Assembly (NCBI RefSeq): GCF_000784835.1
Contig: NZ_JSFH01000004.1
Span: 1 to 64,000 of the forward strand
Direction of reading: 5' to 3'
Source: Thermotoga sp. Mc24
GTDB lineage: Bacteria > Thermotogota > Thermotogae > Thermotogales > Thermotogaceae
DNA: 64,000 nucleotides
A model generated the notes under the pieces. It ran no database searches, was not told where the DNA came from, and saw only the letters and a program-made list of their open reading frames with translations. A program made the position numbers and the translations under genes. Shown here piece after piece: positions 23,007 to 44,761 of this stretch. Within the stretch, counting starts at the first letter, position 1, and every line of letters begins with the position of its first letter.

Positions 23007-24680
23007 TTACAAAGCATCCAGGACTCTTCGTGCTATTTCACTACTACCAACAATCCTTGCTATTTCCTCCAGGGAGGCAGAACGAATATTCTCCAGAGAA
23101 CCAAAGTGTTCGATGAGCTTTTTCTTTCTGATGGGACCTATCCCAGGCACACTATCAAGGACGGACTTGAGTGTTTCTTTCTCTCTTCGTTTTCTGTGGT
23201 AACTCACAGCGAATCTGTGCGTTTCATCTCTTATCTGAACAAGGAGCCTCAAAACTGGGTGATCGTGTGGAAGGTGTATTTCTCTGTTTTCAAAGACAAC
23301 GGTCTCTTCTTTCTTCGCGAGGCCAACGACAGGGCAGTCCTTTCCTGTTTCCTTCAACGCTTCGATAGCGGCGTTTACTTGACCTATTCCACCATCCACG
23401 AACAGAAGATTTGGAAGAGGGTGTTTCGAATATCTTCTTTTCACGACCGTTCTTATCGATTCGTAATCATCGGGATGATCCTGTTCAATCTTGTAACGTC
23501 TGTAATCGCTCTTTTTGGGAAATCCATCCTCGAACACCACCAGAGAAGCCACGGTGTGTTTTCCCTGAAGATGAGAAACATCGATCCCTTCTATCCTGTA
23601 CGGGAAATCTTTCAAATTCAGAAGCTTCATCAATTCTTCGAGCGCTTCCTTCTTCAGCCCTCTCATTTTCAACTCGTTTTCCAGGTTCTTCTTTGCTTTC
23701 TCGAGAAGATCCGCTTCTGTGGTGGAACGTGGTGGACCCACATACTCAAAACCGAGAGAAGAGTAATCCATTTCGTCCAGATTACTCTCCAGAATGAGAT
23801 TTTTCGGTATATCACCTCTTCCGGATACGTAGTATTCTCTGATGAAATCTTCCACACTTCCCCCTTCCATTTCAAAGGAGATCTTTCCTACGAGATAACC
23901 ATTTCTGACCCTCAAAACGACGAACAGGTCGTGTGCGTGGACCAAAACGTCACAGTTGATGTTTTCTTCAAAAACCACACCCTGAGATTCCAGAACATTC
24001 GACAGATTCAAAAGAAGATCCCTGTACTTTGCAGCGTTCTCGAAATCGAGCATTTTACTGTGAGTCTCCATCTTTTCTTTCAAATAATCGAAGACTTCTC
24101 CCATGTTCCCAGAGAGAAACTCTTTCAGCCTTCTTATCGCCTCTTCATGCGATTCTACGTTTCCAATGCACGGACCGGTACACCTGCCAAGATGGTAAAG
24201 GAAACAGGGCCTCTTTATCCTTCTCAAATCGGATTTGCAAGTTCTGAAGCCCATTATCTTCTGAAGGATTTCCAGTAGATTTTTTACGAATTGAACGCTG
24301 GTGTAGGGGCCAAAGTACGTTCCCTCCTTTGATCTTCTCTTCACGATTTCAACGTACGGTATCTCATCATCGGATATCCTGATGTAAGGATAGAAATCCG
24401 TGTCTTTGAGACGAACGTTGTACTTCGGCCTGTACTTTTTTATGAGATTTGCCTCGAGTATGAACGCTTCCCTTTCGTTCATCACAACGATCGTTTCCAG
24501 TTCGTCCGCTTCTTCGATGATTCTGAACACTTTCTCCGTCTGGGGATTGAGGTAACTCCTCAATCTGTTGGACAATATCTTTGCTTTTCCTATGTAGATG
24601 GGAACACCTTTGTCCTTGAAGATGTAAACACCAGGCTCTTCAGGAGCGAGGAGTATTTTCTTTCTTATTCTCTCCTTCAA
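23007..24680 (-). CDS. uvrC: UvrABC excinuclease subunit C
   Basis: Makes both incisions in nucleotide excision repair. The 557-residue protein has an N-terminal GIY-YIG nuclease (PGVYIFKDKGVPIYIGKAKILSNRLRSYL), a Cys-rich segment (CKSDLRRIKRPCFLYHLGRCTGPC) resembling an Fe-S-binding region, and a UVR motif (SKMLDFENAAKYRD). The C-terminal RNase H-like nuclease has IEGIDVSHLQG and LLFVDGGIGQVNAA. A helix-hairpin-helix follows (SVPGIGPIRKKKLIEHFGS). The start is TTG 24678-24680, inside the 3' end of the pseudouridine synthase gene, which indicates coupling. Confidence 0.96.
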   Translation of the reverse strand: MKERIRKKILLAPEEPGVYIFKDKGVPIYIGKAKILSNRLRSYLNPQTEKVFRIIEEADELETIVVMNEREAFILEANLIKKYRPKYNVRLKDTDFYPYIRISDDEIPYVEIVKRRSKEGTYFGPYTSVQFVKNLLEILQKIMGFRTCKSDLRRIKRPCFLYHLGRCTGPCIGNVESHEEAIRRLKEFLSGNMGEVFDYLKEKMETHSKMLDFENAAKYRDLLLNLSNVLESQGVVFEENINCDVLVHAHDLFVVLRVRNGYLVGKISFEMEGGSVEDFIREYYVSGRGDIPKNLILESNLDEMDYSSLGFEYVGPPRSTTEADLLEKAKKNLENELKMRGLKKEALEELMKLLNLKDFPYRIEGIDVSHLQGKHTVASLVVFEDGFPKKSDYRRYKIEQDHPDDYESIRTVVKRRYSKHPLPNLLFVDGGIGQVNAAIEALKETGKDCPVVGLAKKEETVVFENREIHLPHDHPVLRLLVQIRDETHRFAVSYHRKRREKETLKSVLDSVPGIGPIRKKKLIEHFGSLENIRSASLEEIARIVGSSEIARRVLDAL

Positions 24681-25359
24681 AAACCTTCTTCACCTCCTCT
24701 TCACTCAAAAATCTGTACTCTCCGGGTTTCATATCATCGGGTAGAACGAGTTCACCGATTCTTGTTCTCTTCAAGTGCACTGTTCTTAGACCCACAGCAG
24801 CCGTCATCCGTTTGACCTGATGATACCTACCCTCCGTTATAACTATCTTCAACGTGTCGTTCGACAGTTTCTCCACACATTTCGCTTTCGCGAAAAAACC
24901 GTCCCTCAAAGTCACACCATTTTTCAACTTTTCTATCTTGTCTTCTGTGATTTCTCCTTCTACCTTCACGATGTACTCTTTTTCTACAGACCATTTCGGC
25001 GAAGTCACGCGATGAGCGAAATCACCATCGTTCGTTATTATCAGGAGACCTTCGGCGTCTTTGTCGAGTCTTCCAACGGGGAAGATTCCTTTCAATGGGG
25101 GAAGAAATTCCATGATGGTTTCCGAATGGGGATCTTTCGTGCTGGTCACGTATCCTGAAGGTTTGTGGAAGAGAATGTAAACCTTTCTGTGAAAGTTCAC
25201 CGTCTCACCATCGAGTACAACAACATCGTTCTCCGACACAGAATGACCAGGATCGAGCACCACTCTCCCGTTAACGGTCACCCTGCCCTGTTTTATCAGT
25301 TTTTTCACTTCTTTTCTTGTTCCCACACCACTGTTCGAAAGATACCTGTCCAGTCTCAT
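24640..25359 (-). CDS. RsuA/RluB-family rRNA pseudouridine synthase
   Basis: The 239-residue protein converts a uridine in rRNA to pseudouridine. It starts with an S4 RNA-binding domain ([31 protein letters not shown]). The catalytic domain carries the family motif [19 protein letters not shown] around residue 97, with the catalytic Asp of [17 protein letters not shown] near residue 178 is the second signature. Its stop overlaps uvrC by 41 bases, and its ATG overlaps the mnmG stop. The rRNA target (16S or 23S) cannot be told from sequence alone. Confidence 0.92.
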
Positions 25360-35097: not shown

Positions 35098-35424
35098 TCA
35101 CCCCAGCCAGATAGCTTCAAAATGGTCTATTCTTTCAGGGGTCACCCTCACAAAATCAACCCGCGCCGGCCCATTCAACTTGTTCTGGATCATGTAAAAT
35201 CTCGCTGCTCGTTCCAAGTTTCTCACTTTTCTGAGATCTATTCTTTCAAGAGGATCCACTTTTCCATTTCCGCTTTTGACTTCCACGAAAACTATCTCTT
35301 TCCCATCGCGCGCTATTATATCTATCTCACCATACTTTGTTCTGTAGTTTCTTTCAAGAATTTTGTAACCTTTTTTCCTCAAAAATTTACACGCGAGTTC
35401 TTCTGCTTCCTTCCAGTCCATCAT
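35098..35424 (-). CDS. YraN/UPF0102 endonuclease-like protein
   Basis: This 108-residue protein belongs to the UPF0102 family, which has a Holliday-junction-resolvase-like nuclease fold. The core is visible in [34 protein letters not shown], which contains the E-D-ExK residues of that fold. Its cellular role is not established. It sits between gatC (4-base overlap) and smpB. Confidence 0.92.
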
Positions 35425-35711
35425 CTGTGGATTCCGGGAACCTTTATGTGACTGTCTTTTTCTTCCGGGAAGTTCTTCTTTATGAGGTCTCGCATTTCAA
35501 AGAATCTCGGATCCCCTTTCCTGAGTTTGGCACTGTCCTCAACGGGTGTGTACATCGGCTCCACACCCTCTACGTCGACTTCGTTGAGGAGCTCCACGTA
35601 ATCGAGTATCTCCTGAAAATCTTTCATCAGACTTTCTCTCTGATCTTCAGAGAGTTCCAATCTTGCAAGATTTTCAAGATGAAGCACCAGGTCTTTTGTA
35701 ACCTTTATCAT
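35421..35711 (-). CDS. gatC: Asp/Glu-tRNA amidotransferase subunit C
   Basis: The 96-residue GatC wraps around GatA in the complex that converts Glu-tRNA(Gln) or Asp-tRNA(Asn) to the amides. It starts MIKVTKDLVLHLENLARLELSEDQRESLMKDFQEIL and ends with the typical extended C-terminus (PRFFEMRDLIKKNFPEEKDSHIKVPGI). GatA and GatB are not in this window. Its start overlaps csrA by 38 bases. Confidence 0.94.
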   Translation of the reverse strand: MIKVTKDLVLHLENLARLELSEDQRESLMKDFQEILDYVELLNEVDVEGVEPMYTPVEDSAKLRKGDPRFFEMRDLIKKNFPEEKDSHIKVPGIHR

Positions 35712-35925
35712 TTTTCAAAACCCCCTTCAGGTCATCTTTTGAAACCCCAGAAGCTTTTATGTTTTCACTCTTGAGTTCTTCGTAGAGTTCCTCACGAAGA
35801 ATCTTCACATATCTGGGTGCCTCTATACCAATTTTAACAGAATTTCCTTCTATCTTCAGGACAGTTATCACTATGTCCTCGCCGATCATGATCTTTTCCC
35901 CTACTCTTCTGGTGAGAACCAACAC
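35674..35925 (-). CDS. csrA: Carbon storage/translation regulator CsrA
   Basis: A small dimeric RNA-binding protein that blocks or stabilises target mRNAs at GGA motifs. The 83-residue sequence opens MLVLTRRVGEKIMIGEDIVITVL and includes the conserved RYVKILREELYEEL helix region. The C-terminal tail is longer than the E. coli protein. GTG 35923-35925 follows GGGGTGA and matches the conserved N-terminus. The usual antagonist gene fliW is not adjacent. Confidence 0.94.
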   Translation of the reverse strand: MLVLTRRVGEKIMIGEDIVITVLKIEGNSVKIGIEAPRYVKILREELYEELKSENIKASGVSKDDLKGVLKNDKGYKRPGASS

Positions 35926-41343: not shown

Positions 41344-42195
41344 TCACCTCCAGTGAACGTTGTAAATGGGACCTCTTGGACTTTCGTTGTAGTAAGGACG
41401 TGTGCAGTGAGGACATCCACGAGTTTTTAAAGCTTCCTCTGGAAACTCGTCGCTCCATTCGACGTCGATAATTTTACCATTTGAGTCGAAAATTATGTTC
41501 TCTGGCTTTATCAAGTTTTTCTCGAGCAGGTAAGTTACCAGCTGGATTTTTCTGTAACGCTCGAGGGAAGGTCTTTCTCTGTTTTCAAACGCCGTTCCCC
41601 TGATTGGTGTAAAAGCAAACAGAGAAACCACGATGTTTCTTTCCTTTGCCCACACCGTGAAATCAACAATGTCTTTATCACTTTCACCCAATCCAACTAT
41701 CACATGTGTCGTGATTTTTCCGGGAAACATTTCTGCTGCTTTCTCGAGAATATGGAGATGTCTCTCGTATTTTCCTCCTCTGATTTTTTCAAAGAGAGTT
41801 TCGTTGGGAACATCCACAGCGATATCCACTCTGTCGGCTCCCAGTTTGAAATACTCTGTAACCTCCTCCACACTGATAGCTCTGACGCTCACCGAAACCG
41901 GTATTCGAAACCTCGGAATGATCGATCTGAGGTCTTCTCTGTACCCAGCATAAGAAACAACTTGGATACAGATCCTCTTGAAACAATCGTTCAATTTGTT
42001 GAGCAGATCTTCTGAAATCTCCTTCCAGGTGACCCTGGAGAGAAAATGAGACGGGCTTGTGGAAGAGCGTGACTGAGCACAGTACAGACAGTTGTAAACG
42101 CACCTTTCCCCAAGCATGAAATAAGCGGTGTCCATTTCTAAAGACGATTTTCCATTCACTTTCTGAATCGTTCCGTAAGATGCTCTGAGTATCAT
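41344..42195 (-). CDS. Radical SAM enzyme, biotin/lipoate-synthase-like
   Basis: The 283-residue protein has the radical SAM cluster motif CVYNCLYC (CxxxCxxC) at about residue 33 in GERCVYNCLYCAQSRSS, followed by a BioB-type barrel (PVSVSVRAISVEEVTEYFKLGADRVDIAVD, THVIVGLGESDKDIVDFT). The C-terminus ends in GCPHCTRPYYNESPRGPIYN, with a CxxC pair that could bind a second cluster. This tail resembles the archaeal BioB-like proteins linked to two-component lipoate synthases (LipS type). The substrate is not shown by the sequence. It lies directly upstream of rnfC. Confidence 0.85.
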   Translation of the reverse strand: MILRASYGTIQKVNGKSSLEMDTAYFMLGERCVYNCLYCAQSRSSTSPSHFLSRVTWKEISEDLLNKLNDCFKRICIQVVSYAGYREDLRSIIPRFRIPVSVSVRAISVEEVTEYFKLGADRVDIAVDVPNETLFEKIRGGKYERHLHILEKAAEMFPGKITTHVIVGLGESDKDIVDFTVWAKERNIVVSLFAFTPIRGTAFENRERPSLERYRKIQLVTYLLEKNLIKPENIIFDSNGKIIDVEWSDEFPEEALKTRGCPHCTRPYYNESPRGPIYNVHWR

Positions 42196-42464
42196 TTCTC
42201 CACCTCAAACTCGTATTCTCTTTCTTGGTTTCTCAGGTGAACCTTGCTCCCTTCCACACTGATCTCGAAGCCGTTCAAGAACTCAGGAATCGGCTGTTTT
42301 GCTTCCAACCTCATGAACACACCATCCGCGGTTCTCTCGGCCACTCCTTTTTCTCTGTAAAGCAAAAAGATCCTCCTTGCGTGAATGGAAACACTGCAAA
42401 CCGTGAAAAAGACCATTGTAACGATGAAAAGAGCGAAAAGAACCTCTATGACAAGAGATCCTAA
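42192..42464 (-). CDS. Pseudopilin-like small membrane protein, start codon unresolved
   Basis: The sequence contains a type IV prepilin-like N-terminus: LGSLVIEVLFALFIVTMVFF, with Gly at -1 and Glu at +5 as prepilin peptidase requires. About 70 further residues follow, ending EREYEFEVEK. In this frame there is no ATG, GTG or TTG near the expected start. The first ATG upstream (42642-42644) would add about 60 unrelated residues read from the preceding gene. The ATG at 42414-42416 would cut the helix. Expression may use a non-standard start, or a -1 slip at the end of the preceding gene. The bounds given begin at the TTA that overlaps that gene's stop. Confidence 0.55.
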   Translation of the reverse strand, partial: LGSLVIEVLFALFIVTMVFFTVCSVSIHARRIFLLYREKGVAERTADGVFMRLEAKQPIPEFLNGFEISVEGSKVHLRNQEREYEFEVEK

Positions 42465-43486
42465 CTGAAAAGAAGATAAGAGAGTATTAGAAGAATTCCC
42501 ATGACGAGAAGCGCTAGTACGAAAGCCAGAAGAAAATCTGAACTCGCCGCTTTCTGAACGGGTTGAGGAGATTTTCTCAGTTTCAATTTCTCCTGGTTTG
42601 ATTCTTCCCCCTCCCTGAGCATCTCTCCTATTTTTTCCATCCACTCTTCATCGGAAATCTTCACTCTGCTTTCACCACGTTTTATCTTCAGATTCGGGGA
42701 TACTATGGCCTTTCCAATTATCCCTTCTTCAAATTCCACTTTCAAAAGATAAAGATTTCCTTCTCTGGTCTTTACAACCTCTTTCGAGAGGATCTTCCCA
42801 GGAAGACTCGCCACATTTTCCGTTCCGAACTTTTCCTTCAGAAACCTTTTGAACTTCTCCGAAAATTCTTCGTTTCCGTAGTTCAGGATAACAAAATCTA
42901 TCTTCTTTTCTACCTCTATCTCTCTTATGGTCACACCGTTCAAAGGATCAAGAACTGGGAACACTTCTGGGAGATTTCTCAAATCTTCTCTCTGAAACAA
43001 TTTGAAAACTTCATCAGTCGAAAGTTCTTCAAAATGTTCTTTCACCACTTCAAGAGAAACATCTTCATAGTCCAGCGGGGTTCCTACCGCTTCCACTTCC
43101 AGTTTTTCAGACCACTCCCTGAAGAGGTCGGCCATGAAGACCTTGAGTGCCTCGTGATCACCACTTTCAACGAGCCTGAAAAACTCACTCCCAACCAGTC
43201 TAAGATTCTGTTTTCTGGTTTGAATCAGCCAGAAATTGAGGAATTCATCCGTTATGACAGAAGCTTCTGAGACTTCTTTCAAGGCCAGTTCTTTTTTTGC
43301 TTTAAAATCTTCAAGGAACTCCTCAAATCCGAGATTCAGATCTACCGAATACTTTCGAACATACCGACCCGGCATCACAAAAAAATCGTACTCAGGGATC
43401 TGATTGAGTTTGCCGAGGAAATATCCCTGAACGATCTCGGATGTGAGCTTCGATGTGACCCTGAACTTCACAAAATAGAGATCCAC
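42461..43486 (-). CDS. Membrane-anchored protein of unknown function (DUF4899-like)
   Basis: The 341-residue protein has a large charged, mostly helical and beta soluble part and a single C-terminal membrane helix (FLLAFVLALLVMGILLILSYLLF), so it is tail-anchored with the body in the cytoplasm. I think it belongs to a Thermotogales family (DUF4899), from memory. It starts with GTG 43484-43486, just after glgC, and its stop overlaps the pseudopilin-like frame. No catalytic motif is seen. An Arg/Lys-Gln-rich linker (KLRKSPQPVQKA) precedes the helix. Confidence 0.75.
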   Translation of the reverse strand: MDLYFVKFRVTSKLTSEIVQGYFLGKLNQIPEYDFFVMPGRYVRKYSVDLNLGFEEFLEDFKAKKELALKEVSEASVITDEFLNFWLIQTRKQNLRLVGSEFFRLVESGDHEALKVFMADLFREWSEKLEVEAVGTPLDYEDVSLEVVKEHFEELSTDEVFKLFQREDLRNLPEVFPVLDPLNGVTIREIEVEKKIDFVILNYGNEEFSEKFKRFLKEKFGTENVASLPGKILSKEVVKTREGNLYLLKVEFEEGIIGKAIVSPNLKIKRGESRVKISDEEWMEKIGEMLREGEESNQEKLKLRKSPQPVQKAASSDFLLAFVLALLVMGILLILSYLLFS

Positions 43487-43489
43487 TCA

Positions 43490-44761
43490 CTACTCCTCCC
43501 TGGGTATCACATAATCTCCCGATTCCAGAGTTTTCGATTTGAAATCTTCAGGTCCTACACCAATGCCTATGACACAGTTCTTTCCTATTACCATGTCGTC
43601 GGGAATCACCGAATTCATCCCCACCACCGTCAGGAGACCAGAGTACACCTTTGGATCCAGTTTGTTCTCAGCGTCTTCACCCACTCCCATCCTGACGTTG
43701 TTTCCTATTTTTACACTTTCTGCTATTATCACGTTTTCCAGATAGCAGTTCTCTCCTATCTCAGCTCTGGTCATTATGACTGAGTTCTTCACCACCGTTC
43801 CTCTACCGATCTTCACACCCTGGAAAATAACAGAGTTGAAAACATTACCATACACCTCTGCTCCTTCACTCACGAGAGAGGTGGAAACCTTCGAACCAGG
43901 AGCCACGTAAGCGGGTGGCATCTCCTCGGTATGGGTGAAAAACCTCCAGTTCGGATCGTAGAGGTTGAAAGGCGGCACTGGAAGAACAAGCTCCAGATTG
44001 GCTTCCCAATAAGATCTGAGCGTACCAACGTCCCTCCAGTATCCATCGAATCTGAACGCGTAGAGAGAACCGAGATTTTCTCTCAAAATTCTTGGAATCA
44101 CGTCTTTTCCAAAATCATGAGAACTGTTCGGATCGTTTTCGTCTTCGATGAGAACTTTCTTCAGGAATTCATAATTGAAGACGTAAATTCCCAGAGACGC
44201 CAGATTCGATCGGGGTTTTGCCGGTTTTTCTTCAAAATCTACTATTTTCCCATCCACATTCGTTATCATGATACCAAACCTGCTTGCCTCTTCGATGGGT
44301 ACTTCCATGCAGGCTATCGTCCCGTCTGCCTCCTTGAGCAGATGATAATCTATGAGATCGTTGTAATTCATAGCGTACACGTGATCTCCCGAGAGAATGA
44401 GAACGAGTTCCGCGTCGTTTTCTTCGAGAAATTCAAGATTCTGATAGACAGCGTTGGCGGTTCCTTTGTACCAGTCAGACTCATGCCTACCCACGTAAGG
44501 CGGAAGAATTTCGACCCCTCCATCTTTCCTGTCCAAATCCCAGGGTCTTCCGATACCTATGTGTTTCGAAAGAACATGAGGTCTGTACTGGGTCAAAACC
44601 CCTACTCTATAGATACCAGAATTCACACAGTTGCTCAGAGTGAAATCTATGAGACGGTATTTCCCCCCAAAAGGGATAGCGGGTTTCGCTATCCTCTCCG
44701 TGAGAACACCGAGTCGCGTTCCTTGGCCCCCCGCCAGTATCATCGCAACGATGTTTCCCAT
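43490..44761 (-). CDS. glgC: Glucose-1-phosphate adenylyltransferase, catalytic subunit
   Basis: Makes ADP-glucose from glucose 1-phosphate and ATP for glycogen synthesis. The 423-residue protein has the nucleotide site [43 protein letters not shown] with the metal Asp, DFEEKPAKP with the glucose-phosphate Lys, and a C-terminal beta-helix made of hexapeptide-like repeats. It follows glgD by 11 bases and works with it in a mixed tetramer in Thermotoga. Confidence 0.96.

What the first reader, a model, noticed from the sequence alone, without database searches (positions are those of the whole stretch)
42416..42480. Prepilin-like frame with no start codon, overlapping an upstream stop
A convincing prepilin segment (LG then SLVIEVLFALF, Glu at +5) begins at the stop codon of the DUF4899-like gene, but no usual start is in frame. 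The upstream gene ends CTT CTT TTC AGT TAG. A -1 slip on TTC (to TTT) would fuse both proteins, and reinitiation at a non-standard codon would make a free pilin. Both would be unusual.
Basis: partly seen in the sequence, partly recalled or inferred. Interest (0 to 1): 0.5.

Follow-up and report, generated by a model that had tools for sequence, protein, structure and literature searches.

The report
Conserved pilin gene without start codon
A small pilus-type protein in Thermotoga-like heat-loving bacteria is clearly kept by evolution, yet its gene has no normal start signal and its coding begins exactly at the stop signal of the gene before it, which suggests that ribosomes restart there on a non-standard codon.

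Summary
On the minus strand a minor-pilin frame (42464-42192) begins at the TAG stop (42463-42461) of a DUF4899 gene. The nearest in-frame ATG, GTG or TTG upstream is a GTG 60 codons back. It is not a sequencing error: all 7 genomes of the genus and one of a second genus share the junction TTC-AGY-TAG-G, read in the pilin frame as CAG-YTA-GGN (Q-L-G). The pilin is under purifying selection (dN/dS 0.10-0.28). Coding constraint changes frame exactly at the stop: upstream only the DUF4899 frame is constrained, from Gly(-1) on only the pilin frame. In the sister family the same operon mostly has an ordinary ATGA overlap and leaders such as MKRG, also without Shine-Dalgarno. So these lineages seem to have lost the ATG of an SD-less, translationally coupled gene and still make the protein. 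Best explanation: termination-coupled reinitiation at a non-canonical codon at the stop (YUA, or the adjoining GGN). A frameshift fusion is unlikely: no conserved slip site, and wrong membrane topology. The upstream GTG/ATG is missing in the second genus, and its frame shows no coding constraint. The start codon itself is inferred; N-terminal data are needed.

The parts
42461..43486 (-). DUF4899 gene (341 aa, GTG start), C-terminal membrane helix ...LLILSYLLFS*, stop TAG at 42463-42461
   Evidence: ORF; Pfam PF16240 E 1.7e-118; present in 76 of 103 class genomes
42192..42464 (-). Start-less minor-pilin frame: codon -2 TTA (42464-42462, overlaps TAG by its last two bases), Gly(-1) GGA (42461-42459, its first G is the G of TAG), mature protein Ser+1 to Lys+88 (42458-42195), stop TGA 42194-42192
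   Evidence: frame-switch tests; predicted fold; weak GspI/ComGE profile matches
42458..42470 (-). Conserved junction TTC-AGY-TAG-GN; the ten bases TTCAGYTAGG are invariant (Y = T or C) in all 7 distinct genomes
   Evidence: alignment A3, codon alignment
42642..42644 (-). Only canonical in-frame start upstream (GTG, 60 codons before the junction); rejected as the general start
   Evidence: present in 6 of 7 distinct genomes, absent in G004; no coding constraint between it and the junction
42447..42449 (-). ATA at codon +4, alternative near-cognate start for a leaderless protein (ATG, GTG or TTG at +4 or TTG at +2 in relatives)
41344..42195 (-). Radical SAM gene, ordinary ATGA overlap with the pilin stop; follows the pilin in the relatives read (Thermotoga-like, g3, g5 and f2 loci)
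   Evidence: (PF04055 E 1.1e-12)
43490..44761 (-). glgC-like gene upstream of DUF4899 (same order in the sister family)
   Evidence: name recalled, not tested by a profile

Best explanation
This is a real GspI/ComGE-like minor pilin gene, co-operonic with DUF4899 and a radical SAM gene, whose ordinary ATG start has been lost in the genus and one related lineage. SHOWN: the junction is conserved, the pilin is under purifying selection, and the coding constraint passes from the DUF4899 frame to the pilin frame exactly at the TAG stop. INFERRED: ribosomes that finish DUF4899 at UAG do not leave but step back one base and reinitiate, without a Shine-Dalgarno sequence, on the codon that overlaps the stop (UUA/CUA in YUAG, the place that AUG holds in the AUGA overlap of the sister family), or less likely on the adjoining GGN; fMet-Gly is then removed by prepilin peptidase after Gly(-1), giving Ser+1 with Glu+5. 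A weak start tied to DUF4899 translation would keep this minor pilin scarce. Loss of the ATG was probably tolerated because the coupling was already independent of Shine-Dalgarno.
For: Junction without start in 8 of the 12 family genomes that have the frame. Pilin dN/dS 0.10-0.28 in 17 of 21 pairs, dS saturated in 4. Amino acid identity at codons -1 to +4 is 0.66 in the pilin frame against 0.25 and 0.29 in shifted frames, and 0.86 against 0.21/0.26 at +1 to +2; at codons -15 to -4 pN/pS is 0.11 in the DUF4899 frame and about 9 in the pilin frame. Over the last 58 DUF4899 codons the pilin frame is no better conserved (0.377) than the control frame (0.405). The stop is TAG in 7 of 7 distinct genomes although TAG ends only 6 of 53 window genes and 1 of 15 genes in the G004 stretch; only TAG gives the G that begins the Gly(-1) codon, whose third base varies (A,T,T,T,C,T,A). 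Ser+1 is kept as TCN and AGT. Sister family: 6 of the 9 loci with a readable junction have ATG in an ATGA overlap; the starts scored there also lack SD (5 of 5 between +0.7 and -1.9 kcal/mol), like the YTA site here (+1.0 to +3.6), whereas 15 of 17 candidate 4-nt overlap starts in the window have -8.4 or stronger. A prepilin peptidase gene is in the genome. Precedent read: reinitiation in E. coli without SD is IF3-sensitive, with reinitiation on non-AUG codons by mutant initiator tRNAs and mention of a recJ mutant start coupled without SD (passages of PMC2268962; the GUA codon is in a cited title only); calicivirus reinitiation tolerates start codon changes (passages of PMC5972666).
Against: No protein data. 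UUA and CUA share only the middle base with AUG, and no bacterial gene known to me starts there; GGN shares none. The leader would be only Met-Gly, without the usual basic residue. AGG in TAGG could be a weak Shine-Dalgarno for a start at +4, which would also keep TAG-G conserved. TTC before AGY is invariant (7 of 7), which keeps the pilin frame open (TTT would give TAG there), slightly favouring reading from further upstream; TTC is the commoner Phe codon anyway (1044 against 696).
Confidence: 0.55

Rival explanations
1. Leaderless start just inside the mature protein: after the stop the ribosome uses TAGG(A/T) as a weak Shine-Dalgarno and starts at codon +2 or +4 (TTG, ATG, GTG; ATA in the window). 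The product would lack Ser+1 and the cleavage site.
For: 6 of the 7 distinct sequences have ATG, GTG or TTG at +2 or +4 and the window has ATA at +4. Predicted pairing to the 16S tail is -2.4 to -4.8 kcal/mol at these places. It uses near-ordinary codons and explains the conserved TAGG.
Against: The position differs between species. Codons -1 to +2 are under protein-level constraint (aa identity at +1/+2 0.86 against 0.21/0.26 in shifted frames), and Ser+1 survives as both TCN and AGT; codons before a start would not do this. Glu would no longer be at +5. Leu, Val and Met codons are expected in a membrane helix anyway.
Confidence: 0.17
2. -1 ribosomal frameshift just before the TAG makes a DUF4899-pilin fusion.
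For: The pilin frame is -1 relative to DUF4899 and open across the junction; in the window the tRNA on TTC could re-pair on TTT.
Against: The base before TTC is T in only 3 of 7 distinct genomes (G or C in 4), and the next codon AGY cannot re-pair on CAG. No clear stimulatory fold (energy -12.9 kcal/mol over 179 columns, covariation term -0.2). A fusion at this point places Gly^Ser after a helix that should run from inside to outside, out of reach of prepilin peptidase (inference). A shift further upstream, before the helix, would need the pilin frame to be coding there, and it is not. The sister family makes two separate proteins.
Confidence: 0.11
3. Long overlapping gene: translation starts at GTG/ATG 60-61 codons upstream, inside DUF4899, giving a pilin with a long leader.
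For: Canonical codon in 6 of 7 distinct sequences with a moderate predicted SD (-6.3 in 5 of 6, -2.8 in 1). Frame open in all 7, with a per-genome chance of 0.05-0.09 in a synonymous shuffle.
Against: G004 has no ATG, GTG or TTG anywhere in its open frame. The codon is forced by a conserved Trp codon in the other frame. No constraint on the pilin frame for the 58 codons between (0.377 against 0.405 in the control frame); synonymous variation of DUF4899 is among its highest near the end. Open -1 frames of this length are common: 8 of 53 window genes, 18% of segments.
Confidence: 0.11
4. The frame is a dead or untranslated remnant.
For: No recognisable start; weak profile matches only.
Against: dN/dS 0.10-0.28 across deep divergences and 7 of 7 distinct frames intact.
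Confidence: 0.03

Closest known systems
Termination-reinitiation (translational coupling) at ATGA/TAATG overlaps in bacterial operons
   Same: Four-base overlap of stop and presumed start, same phase as ATGA, upstream gene in the same operon; the sister-family orthologue is a textbook ATGA case
   Different: No canonical start codon (YTA instead of ATG, TAG instead of TGA) and no Shine-Dalgarno
E. coli recJ mutant with a GUA start, coupled and without SD (known here only from a cited title and one passage in PMC2268962)
   Same: Coupled, SD-less downstream gene starting on a codon that does not end in G
   Different: A laboratory mutation rescued by IF3 mutants, with a start differing from GUG only in the last base; here the state is natural and conserved over a genus
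Calicivirus and influenza B termination-reinitiation (PMC5972666 passages)
   Same: Reinitiation that tolerates non-cognate start codons because the ribosome is held at the stop
   Different: Eukaryotic ribosomes tethered by an RNA motif; no such motif found here
GspI / ComGE minor pseudopilins
   Same: Gly(-1), Glu(+5), N-terminal hydrophobic helix, small beta domain; weak profile matches
   Different: Below every curated cut-off; no basic leader

Membership tests
Type IV pilin-like minor pseudopilins (GspI/ComGE type) | Gly at -1 and Glu at +5 of a hydrophobic N-terminal segment | tested here: met
   7 of 7 distinct start-less sequences
Type IV pilin-like minor pseudopilins (GspI/ComGE type) | Long N-terminal helix followed by a small beta sheet | tested here: met
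   AlphaFold2 model pLDDT 91.7: helix 2-54, strands 66-71, 74-78, 83-87
Type IV pilin-like minor pseudopilins (GspI/ComGE type) | Fold match to solved pilins | tested here: inconclusive
   No Foldseek match with E <= 0.001 in PDB; best VIA Z 4.3, no pilin listed
Type IV pilin-like minor pseudopilins (GspI/ComGE type) | Profile score over a curated cut-off | tested here: not met
   Window member: gspI E 0.0045, 17.5 bits against 44.35; no N_methyl hit in the window member. Among the 16 homologues gspI matches 10 (best 3.9e-6), ComGE 13 (best 6.2e-4)
Type IV pilin-like minor pseudopilins (GspI/ComGE type) | Leader with a basic residue before the cleavage site | tested here: not met
   No start before Q-L-G; the sister family has MKG, MRYG, MKRG and the like
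Type IV pilin-like minor pseudopilins (GspI/ComGE type) | Prepilin peptidase encoded in the genome | tested here: met
   PF01478 in G000, E 2.2e-16
Termination-reinitiation gene pair | Start overlaps or lies next to the upstream stop | tested here: met
   Coding constraint switches at the TAG; codon -2 or -1 touches the stop
Termination-reinitiation gene pair | Canonical start codon | tested here: not met
   No ATG, GTG or TTG from codon -59 to +1 in any of 7 distinct sequences
Termination-reinitiation gene pair | Downstream synthesis depends on upstream translation | not testable with these tools
   Needs a reporter
Programmed -1 frameshift | Conserved slippery sequence | tested here: not met
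   Base before TTC is T,T,G,G,C,G,T; AGY cannot re-pair
Programmed -1 frameshift | Downstream stimulatory structure | tested here: inconclusive
   Weak consensus fold, covariation term -0.2; pseudoknots not searched

The most novel reading that the evidence does not exclude
A natural, genus-wide bacterial gene is started by termination-coupled reinitiation on UUA/CUA within YUAG (or on GGN), codons never used for de novo initiation, so that a ribosome parked at a stop codon needs almost no codon-anticodon match to begin a new protein.
Probability: 0.4. Interest if true: 0.8.

Novelty: new variant of a known kind. Interest (0 to 1): 0.58.

Why it matters
If true, gene finders that demand ATG/GTG/TTG will miss or mis-start genes of this kind, and it would give a natural, evolutionarily stable case for asking how little start-codon matching a reinitiating bacterial ribosome needs. 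The contrast between one lineage with ATGA and another with YTAG at the same junction, both without Shine-Dalgarno, makes this directly testable by swapping a few bases.

Tried and rejected
Programmed frameshift: no conserved slip site or clear stimulator. Long upstream start: missing in G004, no coding constraint. The open -1 frame as evidence of coding: P 0.05-0.09 per genome by shuffle, but such runs are common in these genomes, so I count it as neutral. Ribosome hopping: a matching take-off and landing codon in the right frame was seen only in G004 (AGT/AGT), by eye. Transcript slippage: the longest run near the junction is four T in the window and shorter in others (by eye). Start at the ATG of codon +15 (IVTM): it is GTG or ACG in some relatives (ACG in G010) and would remove half the helix. 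PDB fold comparison gave no useful match: no Foldseek hit with E <= 0.001 and no pilin among the listed VIA rows.

Literature: no paper holding TM0242, TM0241, DUF4899 or THEMA_03515 (locus names recalled) in the held library. The Hecht 2017 start codon survey is not held; one line about it was seen in PMC10666635. PMC3711429 (reading frame transitions, passages) does not name this pair in the passages seen. PMC9845219 was looked at in passages only. Searches were seen as search listings.

Full report
WHAT IS THERE. On the minus strand the order is glgC-like (44761-43490), DUF4899 (43486-42461), pilin frame (42464-42192), radical SAM (42195-41344). DUF4899 ends ...CTT CTT TTC AGT TAG; the pilin frame reads ...TTT CAG TTA GGA TCT CTT GTC ATA GAG GTT CTT TTC, that is Q-L-G^S-L-V-I-E-V-L-F. 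The only canonical start codon in the open frame upstream of the junction is a GTG 60 codons before it.

CONSERVATION. A search of 14 family genomes found the frame in 12. In all 7 genomes of the window's genus (6 distinct sequences) and in one of a second genus (G004) the junction is the same and has no start; the other 4 (one of genus g3, three of g5) have an ATG overlapping the stop of a different upstream gene, with MRKG^SLLVEN in g3 and MSSTIEIL, MSSLIEIL, MSTLLEIM in g5. In the sister family f2, 9 loci could be read at the junction (a tenth, L029, gave no readable end): 6 have ATG in an ATGA overlap with the DUF4899 stop (leaders MKG, MRYG, MKFRRG, MKRG, MKHRRG, MKHRIG), 2 have ATG after a spacer (MRG, MKG), and in 1 (L016) the first start listed for the pilin is a GTG after a spacer. 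In the f2 loci I listed, the radical SAM gene follows.

IS IT CODING, AND FROM WHERE. For the 7 distinct start-less sequences dN/dS is 0.10-0.28 in 17 of 21 pairs; in the other 4 dS is saturated. Comparing frames base by base: at codons -15 to -4 the DUF4899 frame is constrained (pN/pS 0.11, aa identity 0.91) and the pilin frame is not (ratio about 9, identity 0.48); at codons -1 to +4 the pilin frame is constrained (identity 0.66 against 0.25 and 0.29 in shifted frames); with one genome per deep lineage (4 of 7) the contrast stays (0.57 against 0.13 and 0.17). Over the last 58 codons of DUF4899 the pilin frame is as poorly conserved (0.377) as the third frame (0.405). So protein-level constraint passes from one frame to the other at the stop. 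Two details fit a translated Gly(-1): the stop is TAG in all, though TAG is rare (6 of 53 window genes, 1 of 15 in the G004 stretch), and its G begins the Gly codon, whose third base varies freely; and Ser+1 is written TCT, TCT, TTT (Phe), TCG, TCA, TCG, AGT, so 6 of 7 keep Ser in two codon families.

CONTROLS AND RESULTS AGAINST. The long open -1 frame is no evidence: 8 of 53 window genes have one, although the shuffle gave 0.05-0.09 per genome. The conserved TAGG could be a weak Shine-Dalgarno for a start at +4 (-2.4 to -4.8 kcal/mol). TTC is invariant before AGY, as it would be if the pilin frame were read through there. The sequences are few: 7 distinct, about 4 deep lineages.

WHAT KIND OF PROTEIN. 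AlphaFold2 with 16 homologues: helix 2-54 and three strands, pLDDT 91.7. NCBIfam: weak gspI (10 of 16 homologues, best 3.9e-6) and ComGE (13 of 16, best 6.2e-4), all below the cut-off for the window member; Pfam: nothing above cut-off for the window member. Prepilin peptidase is present (PF01478). Two other pilin-like genes of the window genome are found by the N_methyl profile; the starts I could read there are ordinary.

HOW IT MAY WORK. In f2 the pilin start sits in ATGA and lacks Shine-Dalgarno (5 of 5 scored starts between +0.7 and -1.9 kcal/mol), as does the YTA site (+1.0 to +3.6), while 15 of 17 candidate 4-nt overlap starts in the window show -8.4 or stronger (rough, recalled 16S tail). 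So this pair was probably always run by termination-coupled reinitiation. In the window's genus and G004 the ATGA became YTAG and the leader shrank. I infer that the post-termination ribosome restarts on YUA (or GGN). The literature passages read make this possible but do not show it: E. coli reinitiation without SD is limited by IF3, the factor that rejects poor start codons (PMC2268962), and caliciviral reinitiation accepts altered start codons (PMC5972666).

ALTERNATIVES. Frameshifting lacks a conserved slip site and gives the wrong topology; the long upstream start fails in G004 and shows no coding constraint; a leaderless start at +2/+4 is the strongest rival because it needs no exotic codon, but it does not explain the constraint on codons -1 to +2 or the wandering position. 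I put the best reading at 0.55.

VERDICT. A real and conserved oddity, not an artefact. Start-codon identity is unproven. New variant of a known kind; interest 0.58.

Noticed in passing
L055:12928-13203, L057:7760-8035, L058:14429-14704: In genus g5 the pilin orthologue starts M-S-S-x-x-E: the initiator Met takes the place of Gly(-1), so methionine removal alone would give Ser+1 with Glu at +5 and no prepilin leader is needed.
   Followed up: partly
L051:7102-8771, L055:11537-13203, L057:7760-9465, L058:13020-14704: In g3 and g5 the pilin-radical SAM block sits behind another gene of about 460 aa (resembles DUF342, recalled, not tested) with an ATGA overlap, while DUF4899 lies elsewhere.
   Followed up: partly
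L004 and L006 (G009, G010), end of the pilin frame: The pilin frame runs six codons further (ending WFSEPQ, WYSGPQ; stop TAG) into the radical SAM gene, so the ATGA overlap seen in others is a longer overlap there.
   Followed up: no
window 42224-42195 and other 4-nt overlaps: Most 4-nt overlapping pairs in the window carry a strong Shine-Dalgarno (15 of 17 at -8.4 kcal/mol or stronger); exceptions besides the pilin are candidate starts of the genes at 24640-25359 and 35337-35774.
   Followed up: no
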